From Pseudomonas eutrophicaquae (GTDB taxonomy: Bacteria > Pseudomonadota > Gammaproteobacteria > Pseudomonadales > Pseudomonadaceae), in NCBI RefSeq assembly GCF_023544715.1, contig NZ_JAMJEZ010000005.1:81980-145979 (forward strand): a stretch of 64,000 nucleotides of DNA. Reading direction: 5' to 3'. Positions 28,832-58,048 of this stretch are shown here, in pieces (position 1 is the first letter of the stretch; each line of letters begins with the position of its first letter). The notes beneath the pieces were generated by a model that was not told the DNA's origin, ran no database searches, and worked only from the letters and a program-made list of their open reading frames with translations. Position numbers and translations under genes: made by a program.

Positions 28832-30550
28832 ATGAAACCTACCCCCAAATCGGATCTTGAACAGGCCTTGCTGGCCTGCAAGGGCAGCTTCCTCGCGGTC
28901 GGCTTCTTCAGCCTGTTCGTGAACTTCCTGATGCTGGTGCCCTCCTTTTACATGCTGCAGGTCTACGATCGGGTCATCGCCTCGGGGAGCACCTCGACGC
29001 TGGTGATGCTGACGCTGATCCTGGTGCTGCTGCTGGCCACCATGGGCTCGCTGGAGTGGGTGCGCTCGCGGATCATGGTGCGCATCAGTACCAAGCTGGA
29101 CACCATTCTGGGCGGTCGGCTGTACAAGGCCAGCTTCAAGCAGGCGCTCTACAGCGGCGGGATGAACGCCTCGGCACAGCCCTTGAACGATCTGACCGGC
29201 CTGCGCCAGTTCCTCACCGGCAATGGCCTGTTCGCCTTCTTCGACGCGCCCTGGCTGCCGGTCTATCTGGCCGTGATGTTCATGTTCCACCCGTGGTTCG
29301 GCTGGTTCGCCGTGATCTGTGCGGCTGTGCTGATCTTCCTCGCCTGGGCCAACGAGCGCCTGACCGGCCAGGCCCTCAAGGAAGCCAACAAGGAAAACCT
29401 CTCCGCTACCAGCTTTACCACCAAGAATCTGCGCAACGCCGAGGTGGTCGAGTCGATGGGCATGCTGCCGCAGCTGCTGCGCCGCTGGCAGGAGAAGAAC
29501 AACCGCGTGCTGGAACTGCAAGGCATGGCCAGCGATCGCGCCGGGACCATCACGGCGCTGTCCAAGACCACCCGCATGCTGGTGCAGTCGCTGATCCTGG
29601 GCATCGGTGCCTATCTGGCCCTGCAGCAGGAAATCAGCCCCGGCCTGATGATCGCCGGCTCCATCCTGCTTGGTCGCGCCCTGGCGCCGATCGACCTGAT
29701 GATCGGCTCCTGGAAAGGCTTCACCGCGGCGCGCGGCCAGTATGAGCGCCTCAATGAGCTGCTGGTGCAGATTGCCGCCGAGCCTGAGCGCATGTCGCTG
29801 CCTGCCCCGCAAGGCGCGGTCACGGCCGAAGCGCTGATGGTCACCCCGCCGGGCGCCAAGCAGCCGGTGGTCAAGGGGGTCAGCTTCCAGGTGGCGCCGG
29901 GCGAGTCGGTGGGCATCATCGGCCCGAGCGGTGCCGGCAAGTCGACCCTGGCCCGCGCCCTGCTGGGCATCTGGCCTGCGGCCCACGGCAAGGTGCGTCT
30001 GGATGGCGCTGATGTCTTCACCTGGAAGCGTGACGAGCTGGGGCCGCACATCGGTTACCTGCCGCAGGACATCGAACTGTTCGAGGGCAGCATCGGCGAG
30101 AACATCGCCCGTTTCGGTCCGGTGGATGCGGCGGCGGTGGTCGAGGCGGCGCGTATCGCCGGCGTCCACGAGCTGATCCTGCAGTTCCCGCAGGGTTATG
30201 ACACCGTGATCGGTGCCAGCGGCGGCGGCCTCTCCGGTGGCCAGCGCCAGCGCATCGGCCTGGCGCGTGCCGTGTACGGCAAGCCGCGGCTGATCGTGCT
30301 CGATGAGCCCAACTCCAACCTGGATGATCAGGGCGAACGGGCACTGGCCCAGGCCATGGCACAGCTCAAGGCGAGTGGCACCACCTTGTTCGTCATCACC
30401 CATCGCACCAGCGTGCTGTCGTCGGTGGACAAGCTGATGGTGCTGCGCGATGGCGCGCTGGCCATGTTCGGCCCGCGTGATCAGGTCCTGGGTGAACTGC
30501 AAAAGGCCCAGCAGAGTGCTGCCGTGCAGCGCCCGGTCGGCAACACATAA
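28832..30550 (+). CDS. Type I secretion ABC exporter (PrtD/AprD type)
   Basis: Inner-membrane ATPase-permease of a type I secretion system. It has 572 residues, with a membrane domain at about 20-300 and no N-terminal C39 peptidase domain, as in the protease/lipase/S-layer exporter group. Walker A GPSGAGKST is near residue 364, with signature LSGGQRQRIGLARAV and Walker B LIVLDEPNSNLD. It is the first gene of a three-gene secretion operon. The likely substrates are the RTX protein at 53981-58048 and possibly the repeat protein starting at 63198; no RTX-type gene lies next to it, so this pairing is inferred. Confidence 0.93.
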   Translation: MKPTPKSDLEQALLACKGSFLAVGFFSLFVNFLMLVPSFYMLQVYDRVIASGSTSTLVMLTLILVLLLATMGSLEWVRSRIMVRISTKLDTILGGRLYKASFKQALYSGGMNASAQPLNDLTGLRQFLTGNGLFAFFDAPWLPVYLAVMFMFHPWFGWFAVICAAVLIFLAWANERLTGQALKEANKENLSATSFTTKNLRNAEVVESMGMLPQLLRRWQEKNNRVLELQGMASDRAGTITALSKTTRMLVQSLILGIGAYLALQQEISPGLMIAGSILLGRALAPIDLMIGSWKGFTAARGQYERLNELLVQIAAEPERMSLPAPQGAVTAEALMVTPPGAKQPVVKGVSFQVAPGESVGIIGPSGAGKSTLARALLGIWPAAHGKVRLDGADVFTWKRDELGPHIGYLPQDIELFEGSIGENIARFGPVDAAAVVEAARIAGVHELILQFPQGYDTVIGASGGGLSGGQRQRIGLARAVYGKPRLIVLDEPNSNLDDQGERALAQAMAQLKASGTTLFVITHRTSVLSSVDKLMVLRDGALAMFGPRDQVLGELQKAQQSAAVQRPVGNT

Positions 30551-30563
30551 ACGGATCGACAGA

Positions 30564-31904
30564 ATGGAAAGCCCCGTGGACAAGTCCAAACAGCAATCTG
30601 ACGCCGTCAGCCTGCCGGCGCAGCCGCAGACCAACGACCTTTCGGTACGCCGTATCGGCTACCTGATCCTCTTTCTGACCTTCGGTCTGTTCGGCTCCTG
30701 GGCCGTGCTGGCACCGCTGGACAGCGCCGCACTGGCCCCGGGCGTGGTCACGGTCAAGAGCTACCGCAAGACCGTGCAGCACCTTGAAGGCGGCATCGTC
30801 AAGACCCTGCATGTGCGCGATGGCGATGTGGTGCAGGCCGGCGATGTGCTGATCGAGCTGGACGGCACCCAGACCCTGGCCGAGCTTGAAATGGTCCGTA
30901 GCCAGCTGATCGCCGCCCGTGCCATGGAAAATCGCCTGATGGCCGAGCGTGATGACCTGGAGCGCGTCAACTTCGCCATGACCCCGGAGGGCAACGACCC
31001 GCGGGTGCTCGAAGCCCAGCAGAACGAGGAGCGCATCTTCAACGCCCGGCGCAGTGCCCGCTTGGGCGAGATCGATGTGCTGAAGAAGCGCGCCGTGCAG
31101 CTCAACGAGCAGATTCGCGGCTTCCAGGAAGTGATCGTCAGCAAGCAGGAGCTGGCCCGCTCCTACGAGAGCGAGGTAGGCGAGCTGCGCACCCTGCTCA
31201 AGGAAGGCTTTGTCGACAAGCAGCGCATGCTCGAGCAGGAGCGCAGTGTGACCCGCCTGCGCTCGGAAGTGGCCGATCTGCGCTCCTCGATTGCCCAGGC
31301 GCGCCTGCAGATCGGCGAGACCGAACTGCAGATCGCCCAGCTGCAGAAGAACTTCGTCGCCGAGGTGGTCAACCAGCTGGCCGAAGTGCAGACCCAGGTG
31401 TTTGATCTCAGCGAGCGCTTTGCCGCGGTGCAGGATCGCGCCCGGCGCATCCAGATCCGTGCCCCCGAGGCCGGCATGGTGCTAGGCATGAAGGTGCACA
31501 CCGTCGGCGGGGTGGTAGGACCGGGCACGCCACTGCTGGACATCGTGCCCTCCAGCGAAGACCTGATCGTCGAGGTGCAGATCTCGCCGGTGGACATCGA
31601 CCGGATTGCCCCCGGCAAGCTGGCCGACATCCGCTTCAGCGCCTTCAACAGCGCCACCACGCCGGTGATCGAGGGCACGCTGACCCAGGTGTCGGCCGAC
31701 CGGCTGATCAACGAGCAGACCGGCATGCCTTATTACCTGGGCCGCGTCGAGCTGACCGACAAGGGCCGCCAGGATCTGGCCGAGCTGGTGCTGGTGCCCG
31801 GCATGCCTGCCGAGGTGCTGCTCAATACCGGCTCGCGCACCCTGTTCAACTATCTGGTGCAGCCGGCAACCAATGCGTTTGCCCGCTCGCTGATCGAGGA
31901 CTGA
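30564..31904 (+). CDS. Type I secretion membrane fusion protein (HlyD/AprE family)
   Basis: Periplasmic adaptor linking the ABC exporter to the outer membrane channel. It has 446 residues from the ATG at 30564, 13 bases after the exporter stop; a GTG at 30576 is an alternative. A single N-terminal membrane segment (YLILFLTFGLFGSWAVLAPL) is followed by a lipoyl-like half motif (VQHLEGGIVKTLHVRDGDVV), a long alpha-helical coiled region (about 105-295) and the beta-barrel part with the family motif APEAGMVLGMKVHTVGGVV. Confidence 0.92.
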   Translation: MESPVDKSKQQSDAVSLPAQPQTNDLSVRRIGYLILFLTFGLFGSWAVLAPLDSAALAPGVVTVKSYRKTVQHLEGGIVKTLHVRDGDVVQAGDVLIELDGTQTLAELEMVRSQLIAARAMENRLMAERDDLERVNFAMTPEGNDPRVLEAQQNEERIFNARRSARLGEIDVLKKRAVQLNEQIRGFQEVIVSKQELARSYESEVGELRTLLKEGFVDKQRMLEQERSVTRLRSEVADLRSSIAQARLQIGETELQIAQLQKNFVAEVVNQLAEVQTQVFDLSERFAAVQDRARRIQIRAPEAGMVLGMKVHTVGGVVGPGTPLLDIVPSSEDLIVEVQISPVDIDRIAPGKLADIRFSAFNSATTPVIEGTLTQVSADRLINEQTGMPYYLGRVELTDKGRQDLAELVLVPGMPAEVLLNTGSRTLFNYLVQPATNAFARSLIED

Positions 31905-31908
31905 CGCC

Positions 31909-33465
31909 ATGGCTCATCGCAAGGCTCACCTGAAGACGGCCGTCTGCACGGCCACCCTGATCGCCGCACTGGGCAGTGCCTGGCCGCTATGGGCGCAGCC
32001 TGCCACGGGCGCAGATCCGGACACCCGCACGGCCAGCACCGCGCCGGCGGCGCCTGGCGAGGCGGCGATGCTCGAGACGGTGGCCAGCGAGGCAGCCGCC
32101 GACACCGGGGCGATCGATCAGGTTGCCCGTGTGGTAGAGCGCGCTGCCGCGGCCGAAGATGCGGCCCGCCAGGACGCCGCCGCGGCCGAGGCCGGTCTTG
32201 AGGATCTGTGGTCGCTGTTCCAGGAAGCGGTGATCGATGATCCACGCATCCTGGCGGCCGCCGCACGCCGCGAGGGGGGCAGTGGTCGCGAGCGCGAAGC
32301 CTTCGGCCAGTTGCTGCCGCAGATCAGCGCCAGCGCCAGCGCCAGCCGCACGCTCTACAAGGTCGAGGACCGCGACATCCGCGAGCTGTACAACGGTGAG
32401 CGCTATGCGCTGGGGGTCACCCAGGTCATCTACGATCCGGAGACCTGGTACAACTACCGCCGCTACAGCGAGCTGGCGCGCCGTCTGGCGGCCGAATACG
32501 ACGCAACCCTCGAGGAGGCCACCGTCGATCTGGTCGAGCGCTATTTCATGGCGCTGGCGGCCGAGGATGAACTGGAGCTGGTCAAGGCCGAGCGCCGTGC
32601 CACCCAGCGCAACCTCGACCGCGTGCAGTCGCTGTTCGATCGCCAGCTGGCGCGCATCACCGACGTGCTGGAAATCTCCGCGCGGGTCGATGCGCTGGTG
32701 GCCACCGAGATTGAGGCCCGCAACAAGGTCGAGGTCAGCCGCGAGGCGCTCTCGGAGCTGGTAGGCCGTCAGGTCAGCGGTCGTCTCAAGCGCATCGGCA
32801 GCCAGGCGAGCTTCACGTTGCCGGTACAGGGCCGCGACTACTGGGTCGACCTGGCCCTTGAATCCAATCCGGCCCTCAAGGCCCGGCAGAGTGCGGTGGA
32901 TGCCGCGCTGGCGGGGCTGCGCCAGGCTCGCGCCGGCCATCTGCCCTCGGTCAGCGCCAACCTCACGGCCCAGCGCAGCGACATCGGCTACGAGAACAGC
33001 GCCTCGCCACGGACCGACACCTACGTGGCGGGCCTCGGTCTGCGCGTGCCGATCTACAGCGGCGGCTCGACCAGTGCGCGGGTCTACGCCACCCAGCAGG
33101 ACCTGATGACCGCCGAGCACGAGCTGGAGGCGGTACGCCGTCAGGTGATCCGCGAGACCCGCACCGCATTCTACAGTGTGGAAGCCGGGATCAGCCGCAT
33201 CAATGCCTCGCGCAAGGCGCTGGATTCAGCGGAGAAGGCGCGCATTGCCACCGAGCGCTCGTTCGGCTTCGGGGTGACCAATGCGGTGGACGTGCTCAAC
33301 ACTGTCAAGGAAGAGTACGCGGCCCGGCGCGACCTGCTGCGCTCGCAGTACGACTACATCATGAGCCTGATGGTGCTGCGCCGCTGGAGCGGTACCCTGG
33401 CCGAAGAGGATGTGCGCAAGACCAACGAATGGCTGGTCGCGCCGGATGTGGCGCAGCGTCCATAA
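31909..33465 (+). CDS. TolC-family outer membrane channel for type I secretion
   Basis: Outer membrane efflux protein of 518 residues, four bases after the adaptor gene. A signal peptide ends near AWPLWA. A low-complexity Ala/Asp/Glu-rich stretch (about 30-95) comes before the first TolC repeat and is longer than usual. Two homologous halves with helical and beta parts follow (LGVTQVIYDPETWYNYR in the first, LGLRVPIYSGGSTSARV in the second). It completes the secretion system with the two upstream genes. Confidence 0.91.
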   Translation: MAHRKAHLKTAVCTATLIAALGSAWPLWAQPATGADPDTRTASTAPAAPGEAAMLETVASEAAADTGAIDQVARVVERAAAAEDAARQDAAAAEAGLEDLWSLFQEAVIDDPRILAAAARREGGSGREREAFGQLLPQISASASASRTLYKVEDRDIRELYNGERYALGVTQVIYDPETWYNYRRYSELARRLAAEYDATLEEATVDLVERYFMALAAEDELELVKAERRATQRNLDRVQSLFDRQLARITDVLEISARVDALVATEIEARNKVEVSREALSELVGRQVSGRLKRIGSQASFTLPVQGRDYWVDLALESNPALKARQSAVDAALAGLRQARAGHLPSVSANLTAQRSDIGYENSASPRTDTYVAGLGLRVPIYSGGSTSARVYATQQDLMTAEHELEAVRRQVIRETRTAFYSVEAGISRINASRKALDSAEKARIATERSFGFGVTNAVDVLNTVKEEYAARRDLLRSQYDYIMSLMVLRRWSGTLAEEDVRKTNEWLVAPDVAQRP

Positions 33466-33480
33466 TGGGCTCAGACGGCG

Positions 33481-38505: not shown

Positions 38506-39948
38506 ATGAAGCTCATTCCGGTCATCATGTCCGGCGGCGTCGGGAGCCGTCTGTGGCCTGTTTCCCGAGAAACCCACCCCAAGCCGTTCATGACACTGCC
38601 CGATGGCCAGACCCTGCTGGGCAAGACCTTCCGGCGCGCTGCTGCGCTTGAGGGGGTGGTGGAAATCATGACCGTCACCAACCGCGAGCTGTTCTTCAAG
38701 ACCGAAGACGAGTACCGCCTGTGCGGAAGTCCCGATCTGCCGCGCCGCTTCATTCTCGAGCCCTTCGGGCGCAACACCGCCGCGGCCGTCGCCTGTGCGG
38801 CACTGCAGCTGCGGGCTGTGCATGGCCCGGATGCGCTGATGCTGGTACTGGCGGCCGATCACCTGATCCGTGACGAGGCCGCCTTCGCCGACGCCGTGGC
38901 GCAGGCCAGCCGGCTGGCGGCGGCAGGGTGGCTGGTAACCTTCGGCATCCGTCCTGAATACCCGGAAACCGGCTTTGGCTATATCGAGATCGATCCTGCC
39001 GGGGTGCTGGATGGCGGCTTCAAGGTCAGCCGCTTTGTCGAGAAGCCGGATCTGGCCACCGCCCGCCGCTACCTGGCCGAAGGCCACTACCTGTGGAATT
39101 CCGGGATGTTCTGCCTGCAGGTCGGCAGCGTGCTGGAGCAGTTCGCCCAGCACGCCCCCGATGTGCTGAACGCGGCGCAAGCTGCGCTTGATGCCGCCGA
39201 TGCCGGTCAGCTGCGCACGCAGCAGACCCTGACGCTGGAGCGCGAGAGCTTTGCGGCGGTGCCGGACATCTCGATTGACTACGCCCTGATGGAGCGCTCG
39301 GCGCAGGTGGCCAGCGTGCCCTGCGAGATCGGCTGGAGCGATATCGGCTCCTGGTCGGCGATCAGCGCGCTGACCGAGGCTGACCCGGCAGGCAACCGCT
39401 GCGAGGGCGAGGTGCTGCTGCATGAGGCCCGCCACAATTACGTGCAGAGCCCGGAGCGCCTGACGGCACTGGTCGGTGTCGAGGATCTGATCGTGGTCGA
39501 TACCCCCGATGCGATCCTGGTCGCCCACAAGGAGCGCGCCCAGGACGTCAAGCACATCGTCAGCCAGCTGAAGAAGCGCGGCCATGCGGCCCATCTGCTG
39601 CACCGCACCGTCAACCGTCCATGGGGTACCTACACCACCCTCGAAGAGGGCGAGCGCTTCAAGATCAAGCGCATCGTGGTCAAGCCGGGCGCCTCGCTGT
39701 CCCTGCAGATGCACCACCACCGCAGCGAGCACTGGGTGGTAGTCAGCGGCACGGCCCGTGTGGTCAATGATGCGCAGGACCTGCTGCTGCACACCAACGA
39801 GTCGACCTTCATCCGTGCCGGCCACCGGCATCGTCTGGAGAATCCCGGCGTCATCGATCTGGTGCTGATCGAGGTGCAAAGTGGTGACTACCTCGGCGAG
39901 GACGATATCGTCCGCTTCGAGGATGTCTACGGGCGTGCCGGGCAGTGA
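38506..39948 (+). CDS. manC: Mannose-1-phosphate guanylyltransferase/mannose-6-phosphate isomerase
   Basis: Bifunctional type II enzyme (AlgA/WbpW/PslB class) giving GDP-mannose, the precursor for GDP-D-rhamnose. It has 480 residues. The N-terminal pyrophosphorylase signature GGVGSRLWPVSR is at about 10-21, and FVEKPD is in the middle. The C-terminal cupin isomerase carries MHHHRSEHW with metal-binding His. Presence with gmd and an rmd-like gene in the same region fits a common-antigen (A-band) locus, where it is called wbpW. A TAAGAT box at 38422-38427 may be its -10. Confidence 0.93.
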   Translation: MKLIPVIMSGGVGSRLWPVSRETHPKPFMTLPDGQTLLGKTFRRAAALEGVVEIMTVTNRELFFKTEDEYRLCGSPDLPRRFILEPFGRNTAAAVACAALQLRAVHGPDALMLVLAADHLIRDEAAFADAVAQASRLAAAGWLVTFGIRPEYPETGFGYIEIDPAGVLDGGFKVSRFVEKPDLATARRYLAEGHYLWNSGMFCLQVGSVLEQFAQHAPDVLNAAQAALDAADAGQLRTQQTLTLERESFAAVPDISIDYALMERSAQVASVPCEIGWSDIGSWSAISALTEADPAGNRCEGEVLLHEARHNYVQSPERLTALVGVEDLIVVDTPDAILVAHKERAQDVKHIVSQLKKRGHAAHLLHRTVNRPWGTYTTLEEGERFKIKRIVVKPGASLSLQMHHHRSEHWVVVSGTARVVNDAQDLLLHTNESTFIRAGHRHRLENPGVIDLVLIEVQSGDYLGEDDIVRFEDVYGRAGQ

Positions 39949-39965
39949 AGGGCAGGGCAGAGACG

Positions 39966-40862
39966 ATGACAAGCGCCCCGCGTGCACTGATCACCGGCAT
40001 CCACGGCTTTACTGGACGCTACATGGCCGCCGAGCTGCAGCGGGCCGGCTATCAGGTGTTTGGTCTGGGCAGCCGGCCGGGCAGCGACCCTGACTACCGC
40101 CAGGCGGATCTGGGGGATGCCGCAGCGCTGCGCCGGGTGCTGGCTGAACTGCAGCCTGACTATGTGGTGCACCTGGCAGCGCTGGCCTTTGTCGGCCATG
40201 GCGAGGCCAACGACTTCTACCGCGTCAACCTGATCGGCACTCGCAATCTGCTGGAGGCCATCGCTGCCTGTGGCCATCCGCCGGCGTGCGTGCTGCTGGC
40301 CAGCAGCGCCAATGTCTACGGCAACGCCTCGGCCGGGCGGCTGGATGAAACCACGCTGCCGATGCCGGCCAACGACTATGCGGTCAGCAAGTGGGCGATG
40401 GAGCAGATGGCGCGCCTGTGGAGCGATCGCCTGCCACTGGTGATCGCTAGGCCGTTCAACTACACCGGCGTCGGTCAGGGCGAGCAGTTCCTGCTGCCCA
40501 AGATCGTCAGCCACTTTCGCCGGCGCGCGCCGCGTATCGAGCTGGGCAACCTGGATGTCTGGCGCGATTTCAGTGACGTGCGCGCGCTGGTACGCGCCTA
40601 CCGCGGCCTGCTCGAAACCCGCCCGCTCGGGCAGACCTTCAATGTCGGCTCGGGCCAGGCCCATTCGCTGCGCGAGGTTCTGGACCTGTGCAGCGCGCTG
40701 AGCGGCCATCACCTTGAGGTGGCGGTCAACCCGGCCTTCGTGCGGGCCGGCGAGGTCCGCACCCTGTGCGCCGATGCCAGTGCGCTACACCGGCTGCTGC
40801 CGGACTGGCAGACCCCGCCGCTGCGCGAGACCCTGGCCTGGATGCTGGCGGAGCCGGTGTGA
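39966..40862 (+). CDS. rmd: GDP-6-deoxy-4-keto-D-mannose reductase-like SDR (Rmd type)
   Basis: NAD(P)-binding short-chain dehydrogenase of 298 residues with TGIHGFTGRYMA at the N-terminus, HLAALAFVGHGEAND, SSANVYG and catalytic Tyr/Lys in YAVSK. Most likely it reduces the Gmd product to GDP-D-rhamnose; a 6-deoxy-D-talose reductase is the main alternative, as the two are hard to separate by eye. The ATG at 39966 was preferred to a GTG at 39945 that overlaps the manC end. It overlaps the following glycosyltransferase by four bases. Confidence 0.75.
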   Translation: MTSAPRALITGIHGFTGRYMAAELQRAGYQVFGLGSRPGSDPDYRQADLGDAAALRRVLAELQPDYVVHLAALAFVGHGEANDFYRVNLIGTRNLLEAIAACGHPPACVLLASSANVYGNASAGRLDETTLPMPANDYAVSKWAMEQMARLWSDRLPLVIARPFNYTGVGQGEQFLLPKIVSHFRRRAPRIELGNLDVWRDFSDVRALVRAYRGLLETRPLGQTFNVGSGQAHSLREVLDLCSALSGHHLEVAVNPAFVRAGEVRTLCADASALHRLLPDWQTPPLRETLAWMLAEPV

Positions 40863-42982: not shown

Positions 42983-44002
42983 TTGAATACCCTCTGGCTT
43001 TTGCTGCCCGCTGTGGCCTTGCTGTCTGTGCTGCTCACCGGCCTTCTGCGTCGTTACGCACTGCGTCACCTGCTCGATCTGCCCAGCGCGCGCAGCTCGC
43101 ACAGCGTACCGACGCCCCGCGGTGGCGGAGTGGCCATCGTGCTGGCCTTCTTCAGCGGCCTGCCGCCCGTGTGGGCAGCAGGCTTGATCGACAGCGCGCT
43201 GCTGCTGGCGCTGCTCGGCGCGGGGGGCAGCATGGCCCTGCTCGGCTTTGTCGACGACCACCGTCCGCTGCCGGCGCGCGTGCGCCTGGTCGGTCATGGG
43301 CTGGCCGCCCTGTGGGTGCTGTACTGCCTGGGAGGGCTGCCGCCGCTGCTGCTGTGGGGCATGTCACTGGAACTGGGCGCCGCCGGCTGGGTACTGGGTC
43401 TGCTGTACCTGGTCTGGCTGCTCAACCTGTACAACTTCATGGATGGCATCGATGGCATCGCCAGCCTCGAGGCGCTGAGCGTGTGTCTGGGGGGCGTGCT
43501 GCTGCTGATGCTGGTCGGCGGTGAGGGCAGTGCGGTGCTGTTGCTGCTGGCGGCGGCGGTGGCGGGCTTTCTGTACTGGAACCTGCCGCCGGCGCGGATC
43601 TTCATGGGCGATGCCGGCAGCTGCTTTCTGGGGATCAGCCTGGGCGTATTGTCCCTGCATGCCGCCGCCCAGCAGCCCGTGCTGCTGTGGAGCTGGCTGA
43701 TCCTGCTGGGGGTGTTCATCGTCGATGCCAGCTGGACCCTGCTGCGCCGCCTGCTGCGAGGCGAGGTGCTTTATAAAGCACATTGCAGTCATGCCTATCA
43801 GCGCGCGGCGCGGCGCTGGGGCAGCCATCGCCGGGTGAGCATCGCGGTGACACTGATCAACCTGCTCTGGCTGTTGCCGCTGGCTCTGCTGGTGGCCACG
43901 GGCTGGCTCGAGGGGTTATCTGGTCTGCTGTTAGCTTGGTTGCCACTACTTTTTCTGGCCATTTTGTTGGGTGCTGGACGCATGGAGGACCGTGAATGTT
44001 GA
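42983..44002 (+). CDS. wbpL: WbpL-like undecaprenyl-phosphate sugar-1-phosphate transferase
   Basis: Polytopic inner-membrane enzyme of the WecA/WbpL family that starts O-polysaccharide synthesis on undecaprenyl phosphate. It has 339 residues with about ten membrane segments. Cytoplasmic motifs GFVDDHRPLPARVR, LYNFMDGIDGIAS and IFMGDAGSCFLG carry the catalytic Asp residues. HCSHAYQRAARRWGSHRRVS is the basic C-terminal loop. It uses a TTG start with weak ribosome binding site and overlaps wbpM by seven bases. Its sugar is probably QuiNAc-1-P or FucNAc-1-P, given the neighbours. Confidence 0.9.
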   Translation: MNTLWLLLPAVALLSVLLTGLLRRYALRHLLDLPSARSSHSVPTPRGGGVAIVLAFFSGLPPVWAAGLIDSALLLALLGAGGSMALLGFVDDHRPLPARVRLVGHGLAALWVLYCLGGLPPLLLWGMSLELGAAGWVLGLLYLVWLLNLYNFMDGIDGIASLEALSVCLGGVLLLMLVGGEGSAVLLLLAAAVAGFLYWNLPPARIFMGDAGSCFLGISLGVLSLHAAAQQPVLLWSWLILLGVFIVDASWTLLRRLLRGEVLYKAHCSHAYQRAARRWGSHRRVSIAVTLINLLWLLPLALLVATGWLEGLSGLLLAWLPLLFLAILLGAGRMEDREC

Positions 44003-47754: not shown

Positions 47755-50275
<2,521 letters not shown>

Positions 50276-50304
50276 GCTGGTCACGCCCGCTGATCTGCCC
50301 GGAA

Positions 50305-50329: not shown

Positions 50330-50352
50330 CCATCCCCCCTCCGGACCTTGTC

Positions 50353-53300
50353 ATGCCCCGATCGACCCTGCCTGTGATCCACCAGTTCGCCATCGACATC
50401 ACCCCAGGCGATGGCATCAGCAACGGCATGCTGCTGACCCGCAAGCTGCTGCGCCTGGCCGGCCTCACCTCCGAGATCTACTGCGCCGACATCCCCGCCG
50501 CCCTGCAGGGCGATATCCTGCCGATGAGCGAATACCGCCCCGGCAGCGCGGATGCCCTGCTGGTGCATCACGGCATCGGCAACCCCCATGAGGACTGGCT
50601 GCGCGCACTGCCTGAGCGCAAGTTCATGGTGTTCCATAACATCACCCCCGCCAGCCTGTTTCCTGCCGGGCACCCGATCCTGCCGATGCTGGCCCACGGC
50701 TGGCAACAGGTGGACACCTGGAAGGACTGGCTGGCCGGCAGCATCGCCGACTCGCGGCAAAACCTCGAGGAGCTGCGCAAGCATGGCCATGATCCGGCGC
50801 AGCTGGCCGAGATCCCCCTGCTGGTCGATCTGGAGCGCCTCGCGCCGCTGGCCGGCGCCCGCAGCGATTACCCGCGGCCCTTTACCCTGCTGTTCGTCGG
50901 CCGGGTGATGCCGCACAAGAACCAGCAAGCACTGATCGAAGCCTTCGCCTGTCTGGTGCGCCAGGTGGGCGTGCCGCTGCAGCTCAACCTGGTGGGCGGC
51001 TTCACCGTGCCGGAGTACCGCGACCAGCTGCAGGCGCGGATTGCCGAACTGGGGCTTGAGGGCTGCGTCTGCCTGACCGGCAAGGTTGACGAGGCCCGCC
51101 TGGCCGCCCACTACCGCAACAGCGACCTGTTTGTCTGCCTGAGCCGCCACGAGGGCTTTGGCATGCCGCTGATCGAGGCCATGGCCCACGATCTGCCCGT
51201 GCTGGCCTACAACGCCCCGGCCAGCAACATCCAACACACCCTGGCAGGTGCCGGGCTGATCCTGGACAGCGACGAGCCCCACGAGGTCGCCGCCGCCATC
51301 GCCCAGCTGATGGAAAACCCCGCCCTGCGCCAGTACCTGCGCCGCCAGGGCCGCGCCCGGCTCGCCGAGTTCGCCTACCAGCCACTCTATGAGCGCCTGC
51401 GCGACTACCTGGCCGGCTTTGCCATCGCCCTGCCGGCCCACACCTTTGCGCCGCAGCCCGCCGCCGGGCACGCTGCCGTCGAGCCGGTGGACGAGCGTAT
51501 CGAAGGGCCGTTCGACAGCAGCTACAGCCTGGCGCTGGTCAACCGCGAGCTGGCCCGCGCACTGGCCGAGGAGTGCCGCCGCGTCGCCCTGCGCGCGACC
51601 GAAGGGCCGGGGCCGATTGCCGTCGATGGCGGTTTTCTGCGCGACAACCCCGACTGCGCCGACCTATGTAAGAGAGGGGAGGAGCCTGCCCGCCACGTGC
51701 TGCGCCTGCTCTATCCGCCGCGGGTCACCGGCATGGGCGGCGAGCTGAACGTGCTGTCCTGCTATGGCTGGGAAGAATCCGCACTGCCGCAGGCCTTCTG
51801 CCGCGACTTCAACCAGCACCTGCAGCTGATCACCAGCATGTCCTCCTGGGTGACCCGCACCCTGCAGGACAACGGCATCACCACGCCGATCGTCACCGTA
51901 GGCCTTGGCGCCGACCACATCCTGCGGGCTGCGCCTGATGCCAGCCGGCTGCCGGCACTGAGCGCGGCGGCCGGACGCCTGACCCTGCTGCACGTCTCCT
52001 CCTGCTTCCCGCGCAAGGGCGTGGACGTGCTGCTGGCGGCCTATGGTGCCGCCTTCAGCGCGGCTGACCCGGTGCGGCTGATCATCAAGACCTTCCCCAA
52101 TCCGCACCACGACATCGCCGCCGAGCTGGCCGCCTGGCGTGCCGCACACCCGAATCCGCCCGCGGTGGAGCTGATCAACCAGGACCTGCCGGACAATGCC
52201 CTGCGCGCGCTCTACCAGCTGGCCGATGTACTGGTCGCGCCCTCGCGTGGCGAGGGCTTTGGCCTGCCGCTGGCCGAGGCCATGCTGCACCGCCTGCCGG
52301 TGATCACCACGGCCCGCGGCGGACAGACAGACTTCTGCACCGCCGAAACCGCCTGGCTGATCGATGCTCAGCCGGTGCGCGCGCGCAGCCACCTGCAAGC
52401 CGCCGCCTCGCTGTGGTTCGAGCCCTGTGCGGAACATCTCAAGTCAATCCTGCGTGAATTTGCTGACGCTTTTGTGACAGGCCAGCTGGCGCAGATGACC
52501 GGTGCGCGGACCGAGGCCGCCCTGCAACTGATCAGCCAGCGCTACACCTGGCGGGCGGTCGCCCGCGCCACCGTGCAGGCCATCGAGACCGCCAGCCGCC
52601 AGCCGCTGCTCAAGCCCGCGCCGCGCCTTGGCTGCATCACCACCTGGAACAGCGCCTGCGGCATCGCCACCTACAGCCAGCACCTGCTGGGCAGTGGCCT
52701 TGCCGAGGCCTGCACCCTCCTGGCCAACGACAACGCCGAGCCCATCCGCATCGATGGCGACAACGTGCGGCGCGTCTGGAGTGCCGGGGAGGGGGACGAC
52801 CTGCAACGCCTGCGCGAGGCGATTGCCGAAGGCGCCATCGATTGCCTGCTGATCCAGTTCAATTTCTCCTTTTTTGCCCTGAGCGCCTTTGCCGCGCTGC
52901 TCGAATGGGCGCATGCCCGCGGCATCGTCACCCTGGTGATCTTCCATTCCACCGCCGACGTACAGCACGGCGAAACCCTCAAGAGCCTGCGTGATCTGCG
53001 CGACACGCTCAGACACTGCAACCGCCTGCTGGTTCACAGCGTGGCCGATATTCACCGCCTCGAAGCCATGGGCCTGCGCGACAACCTGCTGTTGTTCCCG
53101 CATGGCGTGCTGCAGCCGCCGGCGATCACCCCGGGTGCCGCTCAGCGGACGGCTGGGCTGGCCGGGCGCACCGTGCTGGCCAGTTACGGCTTCCTGCTGC
53201 CCCACAAGGGCATTGGCGAGCTGATCGAGGCCTTCGCCGGGCTGGCGGCCGAGCGTGCCGACCTGCACCTGCTGCTGGTCACCGCCTGCTACCCGATTGC

Positions 53301-53718
53301 TGAGTCGAGCGCACTGGCCGAGCGCTACCGCCAGCGCATCGCCGCGGCTGATCTGGCCGGTCGGGTGACGCTGATCACCGACTACCTGAGCGATAAGGAG
53401 TCGCTGGCCTGGCTGGCGCAGGCCGATGGCATCGTCTTCCCCTACCAGCACACCCAGGAGTCCTCCAGTGCGGCCGTACGCTGGGGGCTGTGCACCGGCA
53501 AGCCGGTGCTCTGCACCCCGCTGGAGATCTTCGAGGACGTGGCCGAGGCGGTGACCTTCCTGCCCGGCTGCGATGTGGCGGCGCTGCAGGCGGGCCTGCG
53601 TCAAGCACTCGACCATGGTCTGCAAGTGCGCCAGAAAAACTGGTTGAATACGCATTCCTGGCCAATAATCTCAGTGAGGTTGCGAAATATACTGGCGGCG
53701 CTGATGACAAGATATTGA
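50353..53718 (+). CDS. Three-domain GT4 glycosyltransferase
   Basis: A 1121-residue cytoplasmic protein built of three GT4-type units. Unit 1 (about 1-360) has GDGISNGMLL, FHNITPASLFPAGH and HEGFGMPLIEAM (Glu267). Unit 2 (about 380-745) has HVSSCFPRKGVDVLLAAYG and GEGFGLPLAEAM (Glu634). Unit 3 (about 750-1115) has NSACGIATYSQHL and SYGFLLPHKGIGELIEAF but ends in HTQESSSAAVRWGL without an EGFG motif, as in some mannosyl/rhamnosyl polymerising enzymes. It may build a repeating unit with several linkages. Unit 1 is clearly paralogous to the gene at 61950. Its extreme C-terminus (HSWPIISVRLRNIL) looks natural, not frameshifted. Confidence 0.88.
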   Translation: MPRSTLPVIHQFAIDITPGDGISNGMLLTRKLLRLAGLTSEIYCADIPAALQGDILPMSEYRPGSADALLVHHGIGNPHEDWLRALPERKFMVFHNITPASLFPAGHPILPMLAHGWQQVDTWKDWLAGSIADSRQNLEELRKHGHDPAQLAEIPLLVDLERLAPLAGARSDYPRPFTLLFVGRVMPHKNQQALIEAFACLVRQVGVPLQLNLVGGFTVPEYRDQLQARIAELGLEGCVCLTGKVDEARLAAHYRNSDLFVCLSRHEGFGMPLIEAMAHDLPVLAYNAPASNIQHTLAGAGLILDSDEPHEVAAAIAQLMENPALRQYLRRQGRARLAEFAYQPLYERLRDYLAGFAIALPAHTFAPQPAAGHAAVEPVDERIEGPFDSSYSLALVNRELARALAEECRRVALRATEGPGPIAVDGGFLRDNPDCADLCKRGEEPARHVLRLLYPPRVTGMGGELNVLSCYGWEESALPQAFCRDFNQHLQLITSMSSWVTRTLQDNGITTPIVTVGLGADHILRAAPDASRLPALSAAAGRLTLLHVSSCFPRKGVDVLLAAYGAAFSAADPVRLIIKTFPNPHHDIAAELAAWRAAHPNPPAVELINQDLPDNALRALYQLADVLVAPSRGEGFGLPLAEAMLHRLPVITTARGGQTDFCTAETAWLIDAQPVRARSHLQAAASLWFEPCAEHLKSILREFADAFVTGQLAQMTGARTEAALQLISQRYTWRAVARATVQAIETASRQPLLKPAPRLGCITTWNSACGIATYSQHLLGSGLAEACTLLANDNAEPIRIDGDNVRRVWSAGEGDDLQRLREAIAEGAIDCLLIQFNFSFFALSAFAALLEWAHARGIVTLVIFHSTADVQHGETLKSLRDLRDTLRHCNRLLVHSVADIHRLEAMGLRDNLLLFPHGVLQPPAITPGAAQRTAGLAGRTVLASYGFLLPHKGIGELIEAFAGLAAERADLHLLLVTACYPIAESSALAERYRQRIAAADLAGRVTLITDYLSDKESLAWLAQADGIVFPYQHTQESSSAAVRWGLCTGKPVLCTPLEIFEDVAEAVTFLPGCDVAALQAGLRQALDHGLQVRQKNWLNTHSWPIISVRLRNILAALMTRY

Positions 53719-53729: not shown

Positions 53730-53810
53730 AGCTGGTTTGATGGGTTGCTTGTGTGGCTACGCGCAAAACGGGTAGCATTCCGGCCGATGGTCAGCTCATC
53801 AGTTATGTGA

Positions 53811-53938
53811 CTTGCAAACGCAAGCCAGCTCGGTAAGCTGCCTGCGGCCGGCGCAAGCCGACCTTCCCTTGTACGGGGGCTATGCCCCGTTGGGGCATGG
53901 CAACAGGCTGGGGCCGACGGGTCTCGTTCCGCAAGGAA
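53811..53938 (+). promoter_or_regulatory. Structured 5' leader of the RTX protein gene
   Basis: A series of short hairpins lies in the 262-base gap before the RTX gene. They are CTTGC/GCAAG around AAAC (53811-53824), CAGCT/AGCTG (53826-53840), CGGC/GCCG closing a GCAA tetraloop (53849-53860), ATGCCCC/GGGGCAT around GTT (53882-53898) and TTCC/GGAA with another GCAA loop (53927-53938). No open reading frame makes sense here. Stable leaders of this kind are known to lengthen mRNA life of abundant surface proteins. The transcription start is unknown, so some hairpins may lie outside the mRNA. Confidence 0.5.
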
Positions 53939-53980
53939 AGCCTGCATGTCGATTCGACTTATCACGGAGATACAAAAGTA

Positions 53981-56900
53981 ATGGCTATTACCTCTGCACA
54001 AGTGCAACAGCTGTATGTCGGCTACCTGGGTCGCGCTGCTGACCAGGCTGGTCTCGACTACTGGCTGGCCGAGCTGAACAATCCGGCCTCCGGCCTGACC
54101 CTGGAAAACCTGCGCGCCAACTTCGTCAACGAGCAGCCGGAATACGCCAACACCTATGCGGGTCTGACCGTCACCCAGACCGTTGCCAAGATCTACGAGA
54201 ACCTGTTCGAGCGTGCTGCCGAGCCGGCTGGTCTGGCTTACTGGGTCGGTGAAGTGGAAGCGGGTCGCGTGCCGGTCGATCAACTGATCGTTGCCTTCCT
54301 CAACAGCGCCTCTGCCGCTGACCGTCTGGTTGTCGACAACAAGGTGCAGGTTGCCCAGTCCTATACCACCACGGCGGGTGCCAACTTCACCGCCGCTGCA
54401 GCGGCTGATGCCATCGCAGCTGTGGATGCTACTTCCCAGTCCGTACAGGCCGCCCTGGCCAATATTCAGGCTGGCAGCATCACTGGTAACGTTTATGTCC
54501 TGGATGCGAACGTCAACAGCCTGCAGGGTACTGCCGGTAACGATACTTTCCTGGCCAACGCTGCTTCCCTGCAGTTTGCCGACAGCATCAATGGCGGTGC
54601 CGGTAACGACACCCTCAAGCTGACCGTCAGCAACGCCGACTACACTGCCAGCGAAATCACCGCCGGCTTCAAGCTGATCGAGCCGCGCACCACCAGCGTT
54701 GAAGTGCTGGAAGTCACCGCGCGTACCTCGCTCAGCCAAAATGCCGTGGCCGATACCCTGGCTGACGGCATCAACGGTGGCAACAACGCCTTCACCGATC
54801 CGGCTGCAACTTCTGGTGGCAACCGTGATTCCGACACCGTCGACACCATCATTACCCTGAGCTCCGCTCCGGACCTCAAGGTCATCGCTTCCATCGACAG
54901 CGAGCTGAGCGGTTCTGCGCTGACTTTCAACGATATCCAGACCATCGACGGCACGCGCATTCGTATCATTGATACCAACAGCGCTCACAACTTCCTGTTC
55001 GATGACGAAGCAGCGACTGCCGGCAACGACAAGGTCACTCTTGACCTGGCCGAAGCACGTGGCCTGACCATCAACTTCGGCGAGACTCCGGCCACTGGTG
55101 TGTCCGTCAATCAGCTGCCGACCAGCACCACCTTCGCCAATGCTGCCAACCCGGCTCTGGTGGGCGAGGCGAATGCACTGGGTATCAGCAACAACGATGG
55201 CCAAGGCCGTCAGGGCGTCAGCACTTCGCTGCCGACCGGTTTCTACGGTCAGGACGCTGCCAGCCAGTCCGAGATCAACACCCTGACCATCAACTCCTTC
55301 GTTCAGGAGCCGGCAGGTGCCTCGCGCAACTACCGTAACGAGGTGGTTGACCTGAACATTGGCAATGTGGTCGACACCCTGAACATCACTGGCGATGCCC
55401 AGCTGAAGATCGGTCTGGCCTTCCAGCAGGAACAAGAAGTCCTGGCGAGCAACACCCGCATCTCTACAGTCAATGTTGTACAGCAGCTGGCTGTGGCCGA
55501 TACCACCGGCGAGGGTTACGACTACGGTGTGGTTCCGGCACTCGACGTGCTTGACCTGAGCAACAGCGTGCTGCGTGACTTCGCCCTGAGCAGCGCTTCC
55601 TACGCGCTGGATGCCAGCATCCGTACCGTCAATGCCGGTGCACACTTTGCCGGTGTTGATCAGGCCCAGGCTGCTTACGCCGCCCTGCCGACGGCTGACC
55701 TGACCCTGGACATCAGCAACGGCGTCTTCGATGCCGCAGGCCAGGTGTTCAATTACATTGGCTCGCAGGGTGACGACAGCGTCAACTTTGGTGTGCGTAC
55801 CATCAACAAGATCATTGACCTCGGCACTGGCAACGACACCGTCGTCGCAGGTCGTGGCAACGACCTGATCCGTGGTGGCGCAGGTGATGATGTCATCAAG
55901 CACAACAACACCGAGAACAGCTTCCGCACCCTTGGTCAGGCCGACAGCCTGAACGATGGCTACGGCTTTGCTGCTGGCCAGGAAGTCACCGTCTACGGTG
56001 GCGAGGGTAACGATCAGGTGGTCATCGCCGGCCAGGTTGAAGCCAACATGATCTCCCTGGTGGATCTGGGTAACGGCGACGATACCCTGTACGTCGAAGA
56101 CTCCGCCGATGGCGATCTGAATGATGCGGGCGACGCGGGCGTAGCCAACAACCGCATTGCCGGTGGTCTGGGTCAGGACACCATCATTGTCACCACCGCA
56201 GGCAACCGTCTGCCGACAGACACCGTGCTGGATCTGGTCATCTACGGTGACAACGCTGTGACTGGCGAGCACCTGGTCGAGGACCTGAACGCGCCGGCAC
56301 TGCGTGGCGTGCGTGGTGAAGAAGTCACTCGTGCTGCCCGTGACGTCAATGCCAACTTCGTGGCTGACAGCTACTTCGCCAATGCCGCTCTGGCAGGCAC
56401 TGCTGCCGACAGCGACCGCATCTACGTCAACGACATCAACAACACCTACGCCAACCTTGGCAACGGTGACAACGTGTTCGTGCAGCGTGGCCTGAACGGT
56501 AACGGCGTGCTGGATGCCATCGAAGGTGCCGCTGCTGCTGCCGCTGTTCTGCCGGCCAGCGATGTCACTGTCGATGCAGGTAACGGCAACGATACCGTGG
56601 CCATCTACACCAACGGCATCAAGCAGGTGAACACCCGCGGCGGCAACGATGTCATCGACCTGGTCGGTACTGGCAACGTGACTGTACTGGCAGGCGAGGG
56701 TGACGACCGTGTTGTCGTGAGCAGCGTCAGCACTGCGCCGATCGCTAACGCTCCGGCCAACTACATCGACCTGGGCGCTGGCGACGATACCCTGACCGTC
56801 ACCACCAAGGGCGTCGTGAACGGCGTGACCGAGATCTACGGCCGCACTGGTCGTGATGTGGTCAGCATCCTCAATGCCGACACCACCGTTGACACCGATC

Positions 56901-58048
56901 ACACCCTGCACGTCGAGCTGGGTGCCGATGCTGACGTCATGCTGATGCGTGCTCGTGATCTGAAGAACGATGACACCATCTCTGGCGGTAACGATGGCTC
57001 CATCGACCAGTTCATCCTGGTCAGCAATGATGCCGGCCGCACTCAAGAGGCTGTGACCTTCTCTGACAGCAGCCGTGTCGAAGGCTTCGAGCTGTTCGAT
57101 CTGCGTGGTGCCGGTGCAGGGACTGCTGTTGCAGCCACTACTGCCGAGCTGCGTCAGTTCACCAACGGTGGCGTGAACTTCACCCTGACCGAGAACCTGA
57201 TCGCTCGTATGGATCAGAACGTCAGCGTCGGTGATGTGACCAACTACGTGTACGGTGCTGCTCTGCCGGTTGATGGTGCTGCTCAGGGTACTGACGGCAA
57301 CAATGATGGCCTGTTCACCGCTGGCGTGCTGGGCAACATGAATGCCTACAACACCACTGGTGTGCTGACCGTCACTACCGTCGAGCATGGTGTCAATGAC
57401 GACGACATCATCATCGAGTCCAACAACGCCCTGAACCTGACCCAGACTCTGGATCTGCGTGCCCTGGGTGATGTGCTCAACAGCCCGACCAGCGTTCTGT
57501 CTGCCGATCGTTCCTTCGTGAACTTCCTCGGTGGTACCGCGCGTGACGTGGTGGTCGTTGACGAGCGCTCGTTCAACAGCTTCAGCAACCTGCGCTTCGA
57601 CGAGTTCGACCTCGCTGCTGCCAACCTGATCGATGAAGACAACAGCACCCAGGATACCCTCCTGGTGGTTGCCAACACTGTCCGTAACGAAGTGACCGAT
57701 ATCTCCTTCGGTGACTACCGTAACGTGCAGGGTCTGGATGCTGTTGCTCTCGTTGACCAGTCCGCTACCGTCAACAGCACCTTCCGCCTCGAGGCTTCCG
57801 AGTTCCTGGCCAACCAGGCGACCTCCTCGCTGGTGCCGGGCGCCCTGAACGCCGCCGGTGGCGCGCAGGCTGGTCTGCTGGTGACCATCGAGACTGCTGA
57901 CGCTGTCGAGATCTACGGTGCTGCAGGCGCAAGCGTCACCTTCACAGGTGGTGTTGCTCTGGCGGCCCCGGTCACCCTGGACACCGTCGACGGTCAAGTC
58001 CAGCTGGTCGGCGTTGACGCCAACAGCTTCCTGATCACTGCTGTCTAA
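53981..58048 (+). CDS. RTX/DUF4214-type secreted surface protein, candidate S-layer protein
   Basis: A 1355-residue acidic protein, without any cysteine that I can find and with few Met. Residues 1-115 are a DUF4214 pair (LYVGYLGRAADQAGLDYW and IYENLFERAAEPAGLAYW). Calcium-binding nonapeptide motifs occur at about 183-212 (GTAGNDTF, GGAGNDTL), around 615-640 (GTGNDTVV, GGAGDDVI) and scattered later (GGEGNDQV, GNGNDTVA, GAGDDTLT). There is no N-terminal signal peptide and the end is hydrophobic (NSFLITAV), both fitting type I secretion. GGAG precedes the ATG. Codons favour GCT, GGT and CGT, unlike neighbours, which suggests very high expression. An S-layer role is inferred; a large adhesin is the alternative. 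Confidence 0.85.
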   Translation: MAITSAQVQQLYVGYLGRAADQAGLDYWLAELNNPASGLTLENLRANFVNEQPEYANTYAGLTVTQTVAKIYENLFERAAEPAGLAYWVGEVEAGRVPVDQLIVAFLNSASAADRLVVDNKVQVAQSYTTTAGANFTAAAAADAIAAVDATSQSVQAALANIQAGSITGNVYVLDANVNSLQGTAGNDTFLANAASLQFADSINGGAGNDTLKLTVSNADYTASEITAGFKLIEPRTTSVEVLEVTARTSLSQNAVADTLADGINGGNNAFTDPAATSGGNRDSDTVDTIITLSSAPDLKVIASIDSELSGSALTFNDIQTIDGTRIRIIDTNSAHNFLFDDEAATAGNDKVTLDLAEARGLTINFGETPATGVSVNQLPTSTTFANAANPALVGEANALGISNNDGQGRQGVSTSLPTGFYGQDAASQSEINTLTINSFVQEPAGASRNYRNEVVDLNIGNVVDTLNITGDAQLKIGLAFQQEQEVLASNTRISTVNVVQQLAVADTTGEGYDYGVVPALDVLDLSNSVLRDFALSSASYALDASIRTVNAGAHFAGVDQAQAAYAALPTADLTLDISNGVFDAAGQVFNYIGSQGDDSVNFGVRTINKIIDLGTGNDTVVAGRGNDLIRGGAGDDVIKHNNTENSFRTLGQADSLNDGYGFAAGQEVTVYGGEGNDQVVIAGQVEANMISLVDLGNGDDTLYVEDSADGDLNDAGDAGVANNRIAGGLGQDTIIVTTAGNRLPTDTVLDLVIYGDNAVTGEHLVEDLNAPALRGVRGEEVTRAARDVNANFVADSYFANAALAGTAADSDRIYVNDINNTYANLGNGDNVFVQRGLNGNGVLDAIEGAAAAAAVLPASDVTVDAGNGNDTVAIYTNGIKQVNTRGGNDVIDLVGTGNVTVLAGEGDDRVVVSSVSTAPIANAPANYIDLGAGDDTLTVTTKGVVNGVTEIYGRTGRDVVSILNADTTVDTDHTLHVELGADADVMLMRARDLKNDDTISGGNDGSIDQFILVSNDAGRTQEAVTFSDSSRVEGFELFDLRGAGAGTAVAATTAELRQFTNGGVNFTLTENLIARMDQNVSVGDVTNYVYGAALPVDGAAQGTDGNNDGLFTAGVLGNMNAYNTTGVLTVTTVEHGVNDDDIIIESNNALNLTQTLDLRALGDVLNSPTSVLSADRSFVNFLGGTARDVVVVDERSFNSFSNLRFDEFDLAAANLIDEDNSTQDTLLVVANTVRNEVTDISFGDYRNVQGLDAVALVDQSATVNSTFRLEASEFLANQATSSLVPGALNAAGGAQAGLLVTIETADAVEIYGAAGASVTFTGGVALAAPVTLDTVDGQVQLVGVDANSFLITAV

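What the first reader, a model, noticed from the sequence alone, without database searches (positions are those of the whole stretch)
28832..58048. Candidate LPS-anchored S-layer-like coat in a Pseudomonas-type genome
The window combines a complete type I secretion system (28832-33465), a 1355-residue cysteine-free RTX/DUF4214 protein with high-expression codon use and no signal peptide (53981-58048), and a rhamnan-type polysaccharide locus around it. In Caulobacter, RsaA is an RTX S-layer protein exported by a type I system and held on the cell by the O-polysaccharide. Pseudomonads are not known to me for such S-layers. The function is inference; the gene content is seen.
Basis: partly seen in the sequence, partly recalled or inferred. 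Interest (0 to 1): 0.8.

Follow-up and report, generated by a model that had tools for sequence, protein, structure and literature searches.

The report
RsaA-like protein coat on rhamnan LPS
A Pseudomonas relative carries genes for a large calcium-binding protein, an exporter and a rhamnose-type surface sugar that together look like a Caulobacter-type protein coat, and related gene sets sit on Pseudomonas plasmids.

Summary
The gene content is confirmed. The window (RpoB 91-92% to three named Pseudomonas genomes) holds a complete PrtD/RsaD-class type I exporter and a 1355-aa, Cys-free, pI 4.05 DUF4214/RTX protein with ribosomal-like codon use, in a D-rhamnan-type O-polysaccharide locus. The exporter ABC is the only PrtD-class one found in the genome. 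New here: (1) the protein's N-terminal domain recurs on Pseudomonas plasmids and contigs in a block T1SS-gmd-giant GT-DUF4214-Wzm (7 of 13 close loci); (2) around the domain in 10 other genomes (5 genera), Wzt lies in the same 11-20-kb stretch in 8; (3) residues ~165-260 carry a module whose family profile hits RsaA in the PDB (E 2e-9). A 2025 paper finds a T1SS in the P. syringae D-rhamnan locus and calls its function unknown (PMC12608077). Against: the N-terminal domain's likeness to RsaA's LPS-binding domain is sub-threshold, P0001 alone does not hit RsaA, the core could not be modelled, other RTX proteins exist, no lattice is shown. Best reading: a T1SS-exported, O-polysaccharide-anchored coat protein, probably S-layer-like; a new variant of a known kind.

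The parts
28832..30550 (+). Type I exporter ABC permease/ATPase (PrtD/RsaD class)
   Evidence: TIGR01842 774.6 bits, cut-off 510; only hit over the cut-off in the genome
30558..31904 (+). HlyD-type membrane-fusion subunit
   Evidence: TIGR01843 380 bits
31909..33465 (+). TolC-type outer-membrane channel
   Evidence: TIGR01844 269 bits
38506..39948 (+). ManC/WbpW-type GDP-mannose synthesis
   Evidence: TIGR01479 578.6 bits, over cut-off
39945..40862 (+). Rmd-like GDP-4-keto-6-deoxymannose reductase (name inferred; Pfam gives GDP_Man_Dehyd/Epimerase)
   Evidence: Pfam
42983..44002 (+). WbpL-like polyprenyl-phosphate glycosyltransferase (name recalled)
   Evidence: PF00953
43996..46026 (+). WbpM-like polysaccharide biosynthesis protein (name recalled)
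   Evidence: PF02719 394 bits
47755..49152 (+). GT4 glycosyltransferase
   Evidence: Pfam
49229..50275 (+). Gmd, GDP-mannose 4,6-dehydratase
   Evidence: TIGR01472 488.5 bits, over cut-off; 83-85% identical in the 7 complete cassettes
50353..53718 (+). Giant glycosyltransferase GT1121 (1121 aa, three Glycos_transf_1 stretches), directly upstream of the coat gene as in the cassettes
   Evidence: not found at E<=1e-100 in the 56 other relatives searched
53981..58048 (+). DUF4214/RTX coat protein P0001, 1355 aa
53981..54475 (+). N-terminal helical domain of P0001 (residues 1-165, DUF4214 x2), proposed anchor
   Evidence: AF2 block pLDDT 85-97; recurs in cassettes
54476..54760 (+). RsaA-like calcium-binding module (residues ~166-260)
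   Evidence: family profile hits to RsaA; 30.7 bits against a relatives-only profile
55823..56800 (+). Region with most RTX-type GxGx[DN] motifs (residues ~615-940)
58068..58100 (+). Strong intrinsic terminator after the coat gene
   Evidence: 11-bp stem, -24.1 kcal/mol, z -4.2
58099..59388 (+). GT4 glycosyltransferase (ORF start touches the terminator; true start probably downstream)
   Evidence: PF12000 200.9 bits
59443..60666 (+). Wzt, ATPase of O-polysaccharide exporter with Wzt_C domain
   Evidence: PF14524 113.8 bits; no Wzt_C match in the 8 genus siblings searched
60591..61946 (+). Methyltransferase, candidate chain-capping enzyme (role inferred)
   Evidence: Pfam Methyltransf_23
61950..63050 (+). 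GT4 glycosyltransferase

Best explanation
P0001 is a secreted surface-coat protein built like Caulobacter RsaA. An N-terminal all-helical DUF4214 domain holds it to the cell's own ABC-exported, D-rhamnan-type O-polysaccharide. A calcium-binding RsaA-like module and an RTX-containing body follow, and the C-terminus is the export signal. The window's T1SS exports it without a signal peptide; outside, Ca2+ folds the RTX part and copies assemble on the sugar chains, probably as an S-layer. Shown: gene content, the single PrtD-class exporter found, high-expression codons, a terminator after the gene, the RsaA-like module by family profile, and the recurring linkage to gmd/Wzm/Wzt in Pseudomonas and near kin. 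Inferred: export by this T1SS, binding to the rhamnan, and assembly as a lattice.
For: Only one ABC over the PrtD cut-off in a 99.85%-complete genome; the next hit has 222 bits, cut-off 510. Contiguous T1SS-gmd-GT1121-DUF4214 in 7 of 13 close loci (L043-L055), three more cut by contig ends with GT1121 upstream, three without. Of 10 other genomes (5 genera) with the domain at E<=1e-20, Wzt lies in the fetched 11-20-kb stretch in 8 and a related methyltransferase in the other 2; 0 of 6 fetched loci of related exporters from genomes without the domain show either. In 3 of the 4 relatives with weaker domain matches (G013, G017, G029, not G033), one lies within 5 kb of a related exporter ABC. P0001, GT1121 and Wzt_C were all not found in the 8 genus siblings searched. 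The family profile's best PDB hits are RsaA (1.9e-9), also with P0001 left out (2.4e-9; next a lipase at 0.07). P0001 scores 30.7 bits against a relatives-only profile, two generic RTX controls at most 15. Acidic, Cys-free, abundant and two-part build are printed hallmarks of RTX S-layer proteins (PMC3034196, passages).
Against: N-terminal domain vs RsaA's O-antigen-binding domain is not significant: 8.5 bits, E 0.12, rank 1 of 1001 with shuffles; hhalign rank 2 of 61; Foldseek's best is the phycobilisome linker fold, no match at E<=0.001 and no RsaA in the 50 of 125 rows shown. P0001 alone finds no PDB match at E<=1, and its module alone finds only generic RTX proteins. The relatives-only profile came from an alignment made with P0001 in it. 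The body beyond residue 170 has no match at E<=1e-10 in 389 other genomes of the order, and its model is useless (pLDDT 30). Other RTX ORFs exist in the genome, one of >=1512 aa with similar CAI 0.758. Exporter relatives at 77-85% occur in 3 genus siblings without P0001. In G033, Wzt_C lies 4.4 kb from an exporter ABC on a contig without a domain match, against the 0-of-6 control. In the 68 more distant loci L056-L123 only 3 show Wzm/Wzt/MT, and only 1 of the 10 loci has a T1SS in the stretch fetched.
Confidence: 0.55

Rival explanations
1. A T1SS-secreted, surface-held biofilm or adhesion protein that uses the same anchor but never forms an ordered layer; the giant GT and Gmd make its sugar receptor.
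For: The 13 close Pseudomonas relatives are 586-634 aa proteins with at most one RTX-like motif and the same anchor, so the anchor carries very different bodies. The genome also has a large RTX protein with repeated VCBS-like segments (name recalled). DUF4214 also sits on a 5'-nucleotidase-like protein on C57, so it may be a general surface tag.
Against: The RsaA-like module, very low Lys and size fit S-layer proteins; Pfam finds only DUF4214 and RTX in P0001 up to E 1.
Confidence: 0.27
2. The protein is an S-layer or adhesin glycoprotein: the giant GT next to it, with Gmd-derived sugar, glycosylates it in the cytoplasm before export, and it is not held by LPS.
For: GT1121 is directly upstream of the DUF4214 gene in 10 of 13 close loci, and Gmd comes with it in 7. 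Giant rhamnosyltransferases modify flagellin in some Pseudomonas (recalled, not checked).
Against: The domain also lies by Wzt loci without a close GT1121 homologue; GT1121 has three Glycos_transf_1 stretches, which suits a polymer-making enzyme (inference).
Confidence: 0.12
3. An unrelated RTX exoprotein or enzyme that merely sits in an LPS island; the exporter serves other substrates.
For: 20.5 kb apart; other RTX ORFs in the genome.
Against: No catalytic domain found by Pfam in 1355 aa; recurrent linkage in other genomes.
Confidence: 0.06

Closest known systems
RsaA / RsaDEF S-layer of Caulobacter crescentus
   Same: T1SS export class, acidic Cys-free RTX protein, RsaA-like Ca module, helical N-terminal domain; LPS genes near the exporter in Caulobacter are recalled
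   Different: N-terminal domain is DUF4214, only marginally alignable; RsaA's O-antigen is N-acetyl-perosamine/mannose with 3-O-methyl-glucose (PMC6978808, passages), here D-rhamnan-type is predicted; exporter 20 kb away; body has no homologue found
Methanotroph 'hauberk' S-layer protein MEALZ_0971 (PMC11784148, passages)
   Same: Gammaproteobacterial, T1SS genes upstream, homology to the RsaA Ca-binding region, highly expressed
   Different: That paper reports no homology to the RsaA LPS-binding part and predicts a transmembrane segment; no rhamnan locus in the passages seen
Pseudomonas common polysaccharide antigen (D-rhamnan) locus, P. syringae class A form (PMC12608077, passages and section 17)
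   Same: gmd, rmd, algA, wzm; a PrsD/PrsE/TolC-like T1SS in the locus (13, 13 and 14 of 17 class A strains, 0 of 20 class B); it describes a plasmid with gmd and T1SS genes in strain CC1524, the strain of my L044 (pCC1524)
   Different: The paper calls the T1SS function unknown; DUF and RTX do not occur in its main text, S-layer 0 times in the listing
Halo4214, a DUF4214 protein of Halomonas (PMC11970703, passages)
   Same: DUF4214 region (S16-V104) aligned by SWISS-MODEL to the Caulobacter S-layer protein; 1038 aa
   Different: Read there as an anchored lipase-like enzyme; mutated in 7 of 8 evolved populations; no locus context in the passages seen
NpdA S-layer family (PMC10765051, passages) and Azotobacter vinelandii S-layer (PMC4465626, passages)
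   Same: Proteobacterial S-layers, the latter in the same family (recalled)
   Different: Linked to type II secretion genes, not T1SS

Membership tests
RTX S-layer proteins (RsaA type) | Acidic, cysteine-free, large, RTX motifs | tested here: met
   pI 4.05, 0 Cys, 140 kDa, 4 GGxGxD and 12 looser motifs
RTX S-layer proteins (RsaA type) | Ca-binding module as in RsaA (about residues 247-363) | tested here: met
   By family profile: RsaA best; P0001 30.7 vs <=15 bits for two RTX controls. P0001 alone is not significant
RTX S-layer proteins (RsaA type) | N-terminal LPS-binding domain homologous to RsaA 1-249 | tested here: inconclusive
   8.5 bits, E 0.12, rank 1 of 1001; hhalign rank 2 of 61; no RsaA in the 50 of 125 Foldseek rows shown
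RTX S-layer proteins (RsaA type) | Exported by a linked T1SS with an uncleaved C-terminal signal | tested here: inconclusive
   Only PrtD-class ABC found in the genome, contiguous in 7 of 13 close loci, but 20.5 kb away here and other RTX proteins exist; export not assayed
RTX S-layer proteins (RsaA type) | Very abundant protein | tested here: inconclusive
   Codon proxy only: CAI 0.762
RTX S-layer proteins (RsaA type) | Two-dimensional lattice on cells | not testable with these tools
   core model pLDDT 30
Pseudomonas D-rhamnan (CPA) locus | gmd, rmd, GDP-mannose synthesis, Wzt/Wzm, rhamnosyltransferases | tested here: met
   Wzm homologue on contig C57, 76% to cassette Wzm. Sugar identity and GT specificities are inferred
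LapA-type giant adhesins | LapB/LssB-class exporter in the genome | tested here: inconclusive
   By proxy: the PrtD model finds no second ABC above 222 bits, while the window's ABC scores 382 on the LssB model; the LssB model itself was not searched in the genome
LapA-type giant adhesins | LapG cleavage site and LapD/LapG partners | not tested
   no search run

The most novel reading that the evidence does not exclude
A horizontally moving coat module spread over Pseudomonas: exporter, Gmd, a giant glycosyltransferase and a coat protein whose DUF4214 anchor fits the D-rhamnan made by the same locus. The bodies are interchangeable (about 600 aa and RTX-poor in the 13 close relatives, a 1355-aa RsaA-like RTX body here). 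It would explain the unexplained T1SS in the P. syringae rhamnan locus and would let a plasmid swap the O-polysaccharide and the protein shield over it in one step, changing tailocin and phage access.
Probability: 0.3. Interest if true: 0.78.

Novelty: new variant of a known kind. Interest (0 to 1): 0.6.

Why it matters
It proposes a substrate and purpose for type I exporters that lie in Pseudomonas D-rhamnan loci and are called of unknown function in print (PMC12608077, section 17). It gives DUF4214 a testable role as a surface anchor tied to ABC-exported O-polysaccharide. If right, work on tailocin and phage access to Pseudomonas LPS has been missing a protein layer, and an RsaA-like coat could be studied in tractable pseudomonads.

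Tried and rejected
Core structure: single-sequence AF2 of residues 161-1355 gave pLDDT 30.2, so no fold search was made with it. Homologues of the core: tblastn on session loci at E<=1e-8 showed none in the loci printed (own-genome loci were left out of the print); phmmer on 42 relatives none; 389 other genomes of the order none at E<=1e-10; only short weak BLASTP pieces, best 6e-5.

PDB: phmmer of P0001 gave none at E<=1; the profile of the N-terminal domain alone gave only two phycobilisome proteins at E 0.02. I dropped the claim that the domain is a proven homologue of RsaA's anchor.

Dedicated exporter: weakened, because genus siblings carry the exporter at 77-85% with other neighbours: a repeat protein in G004 and RTX proteins in G002. 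Exporter loci of G005-G008, G012, G013, G015, G018, G029, G033, G034 and G044 were not fetched.

The promoter scan found no sigma-70-like site in 53650-58200. NCBIfam named only ManC over its cut-off among the 10 sugar-locus and neighbouring proteins given, at E<=1e-60. A CAI value of 0.149 for one C57 ORF came from a wrong reading frame of mine and is disregarded. Literature searches; DUF4214 occurs in 4 held papers.
Full report
Observation. The three exporter genes (28832-33465) pass the NCBIfam cut-offs for a PrtD-class type I system. The RTX gene encodes 1355 residues without cysteine, pI 4.05, with two DUF4214 stretches at the N-terminus and a modest number of RTX motifs. Its codon adaptation index against 27 genes of the same genome, taken by eye as ribosomal and other highly expressed genes, is 0.762, third of 24 window genes measured after a carbamoyltransferase and gmd. 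The same protein encoded with the codon habits of 21 window genes reaches at most 0.691 in 1000 draws. A strong terminator follows the stop codon. The surrounding genes include GDP-mannose synthesis, Rmd-like and Gmd enzymes, Wzt with its chain-recognition domain, a methyltransferase and several glycosyltransferases: a D-rhamnan-type O-polysaccharide locus. The sugar itself is inferred.

Organism. The genome is 2.55 Mb in 57 contigs, 99.85% complete, and unnamed. Its RpoB is 91% identical to that of P. baetica, 92% to those of P. fluorescens PS918 and Pseudomonas sp. UBA1879, 80% to a Halomonas and 79% to a Pontibacterium genome. I take it as Pseudomonadaceae.

Exporter and substrate. The window's ABC protein is the only hit over the PrtD cut-off in the genome; the next scores 222 bits. 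If P0001 leaves by a type I system, it is very likely this one. P0001 is not the only candidate: other RTX ORFs lie on contigs C35 and C57, one of at least 1512 residues with similar codon adaptation (0.758). C57 also holds a 207-residue protein with the same N-terminal domain (73% identical over residues 1-164), a 5'-nucleotidase-like protein with DUF4214 at its end, and a protein with four DUF4214 stretches.

The cassette. Residues 1-169 of P0001 (1-128 in the third) are 54-62% identical to the start of DUF4214 proteins on three Pseudomonas plasmids. There the order is T1SS (3 genes), gmd, a giant glycosyltransferase of about 1120 aa, the DUF4214 gene, an ABC permease. The genome scan gave 78 loci. 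In the 13 close loci L043-L055 (3 plasmids, 10 Pseudomonas contigs) the giant glycosyltransferase is present in 10, T1SS in 7, gmd in 7, any of Wzm/Wzt/MT in 9; three (L047, L051, L052) have none of these, and three (L048, L050, L055) are cut by contig ends. The gmd-glycosyltransferase-coat order of the window (49229-58048) is that of the cassette; the exporter is separate, and the cassette's permease has its 76% homologue on C57, beside the 207-residue protein. The body of P0001 differs: the 13 close relatives are 586-634 aa with at most one RTX-like motif.

Link to the O-polysaccharide exporter. Searches of 249 family and 369 class genomes gave 10 genomes other than this one, in 5 genera, with a match at E<=1e-20. 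I fetched 11-20 kb around each: Wzt is present in 8 of 10 (4 of 5 genera) and a related methyltransferase, a weaker marker, in the remaining 2; T1SS in 1 of 10. As a control, six fetched loci of related exporters from genomes without the domain (L143, L145, L148, L152, L153, L154) show no Wzt or methyltransferase beyond the cross-match of the exporter ATPase itself. Two further facts from the tables cut both ways. In three of the four relatives with weaker domain matches (G013, G017, G029) a DUF4214 ORF lies within 5 kb of a related exporter ABC, and in G017 Wzm/Wzt are near too. In the fourth, G033, Wzt_C lies 4.4 kb from an exporter on a contig without a domain match, so the control is not clean. 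Wzt_C genes are scarce: 21 matches in 16 of 57 genomes, this one included, none in the 8 genus siblings. Those siblings also show no P0001 (E<=1e-3) and no giant glycosyltransferase (E<=1e-100). In the more distant loci L056-L123 (two of them Pseudomonas) the link is weak, 3 of 68.

RsaA likeness. Residues 1-300 aligned with nine relatives give a profile whose PDB hits up to E 1 are four RsaA sequences, best E 1.9e-9, and one phycobilisome protein at 0.32; the RsaA match is mainly to the module after the N-terminal domain, about residues 247-363. Four relatives alone also find RsaA first (2.4e-9), then lipases at 0.07 and an adhesin at 0.14. A profile of the nine relatives without P0001 (but from the alignment made with it) scores P0001 at 30.7 bits, 25.3 with four relatives; two generic RTX proteins of a sibling reach at most 15. 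P0001 by itself is not significant. The model of residues 1-300 is good for the helical domain (block pLDDT 85-97) and fair for the strands 171-250. For the helical domain the relation to RsaA's O-antigen-binding domain is suggestive only: first of 1001 against shuffles but E 0.12; second of 61 by hhalign; Foldseek prefers phycobilisome linkers, without significance. The passages seen in PMC11970703 report an independent SWISS-MODEL alignment of a Halomonas DUF4214 protein to the Caulobacter S-layer protein.

Mechanism. I infer: cytoplasmic synthesis, export through 28832-33465, Ca2+-driven folding of the RTX part outside, attachment by the DUF4214 domain to the rhamnan exported by Wzm/Wzt, and side-by-side assembly. 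The RsaA precedent for Ca-dependent O-antigen binding is PMC6978808 (passages). Only the gene content, the linkage and the module are shown.

Place in what is known. A T1SS-linked RsaA-like S-layer protein is reported in gammaproteobacterial methanotrophs (PMC11784148, passages); layers linked to type II secretion genes are reported for NpdA bearers and suggested for Azotobacter vinelandii (PMC10765051, PMC4465626, passages). What I did not find in print, in the searches, is a DUF4214 coat tied to the Pseudomonas rhamnan locus. PMC12608077 finds the exporter genes in that locus in P. syringae class A strains (13, 13 and 14 of 17; 0 of 20 in class B) and describes a CC1524 plasmid with gmd and T1SS genes, but calls the exporter's function unknown (passages and section 17). 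The library holds open-licence papers only, so absence is weak evidence.

Verdict.

Noticed in passing
L039:10377-11000 (own contig C57): A 207-aa protein made mostly of the P0001 N-terminal domain (73% identical over residues 1-164) plus a short tail, divergent from a Wzm permease that is 76% identical to the cassette Wzm.
   Followed up: partly
L039:18620-19954 (own contig C57, - strand): A DUF4214 protein that holds a long unit (about 225 residues) twice in tandem, nearly identical.
   Followed up: no
L179 (own contig C35, 5677 bases) and L155:1-963 (start of C57): An RTX protein of at least 1512 aa with repeated VCBS-like segments (name recalled), open at the contig start; the last ORF of C35 ends in residues nearly repeated at the start of C57, so the contigs may adjoin or share a repeat.
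   Followed up: partly
L143:9434-11218 (G004, same genus): Next to an exporter 85% identical to the window's, a Cys-free acidic protein of simple TTAQIAAL-type repeats running to the contig end.
   Followed up: no
window 15386-17140: A carbamoyltransferase gene with the highest codon adaptation (0.815) of the 24 window genes measured.
   Followed up: no
G000 (whole genome): The genome is 2.55 Mb at 99.85% completeness, while the 8 same-genus genomes searched are 3.2-4.7 Mb; possible genome reduction.
   Followed up: no
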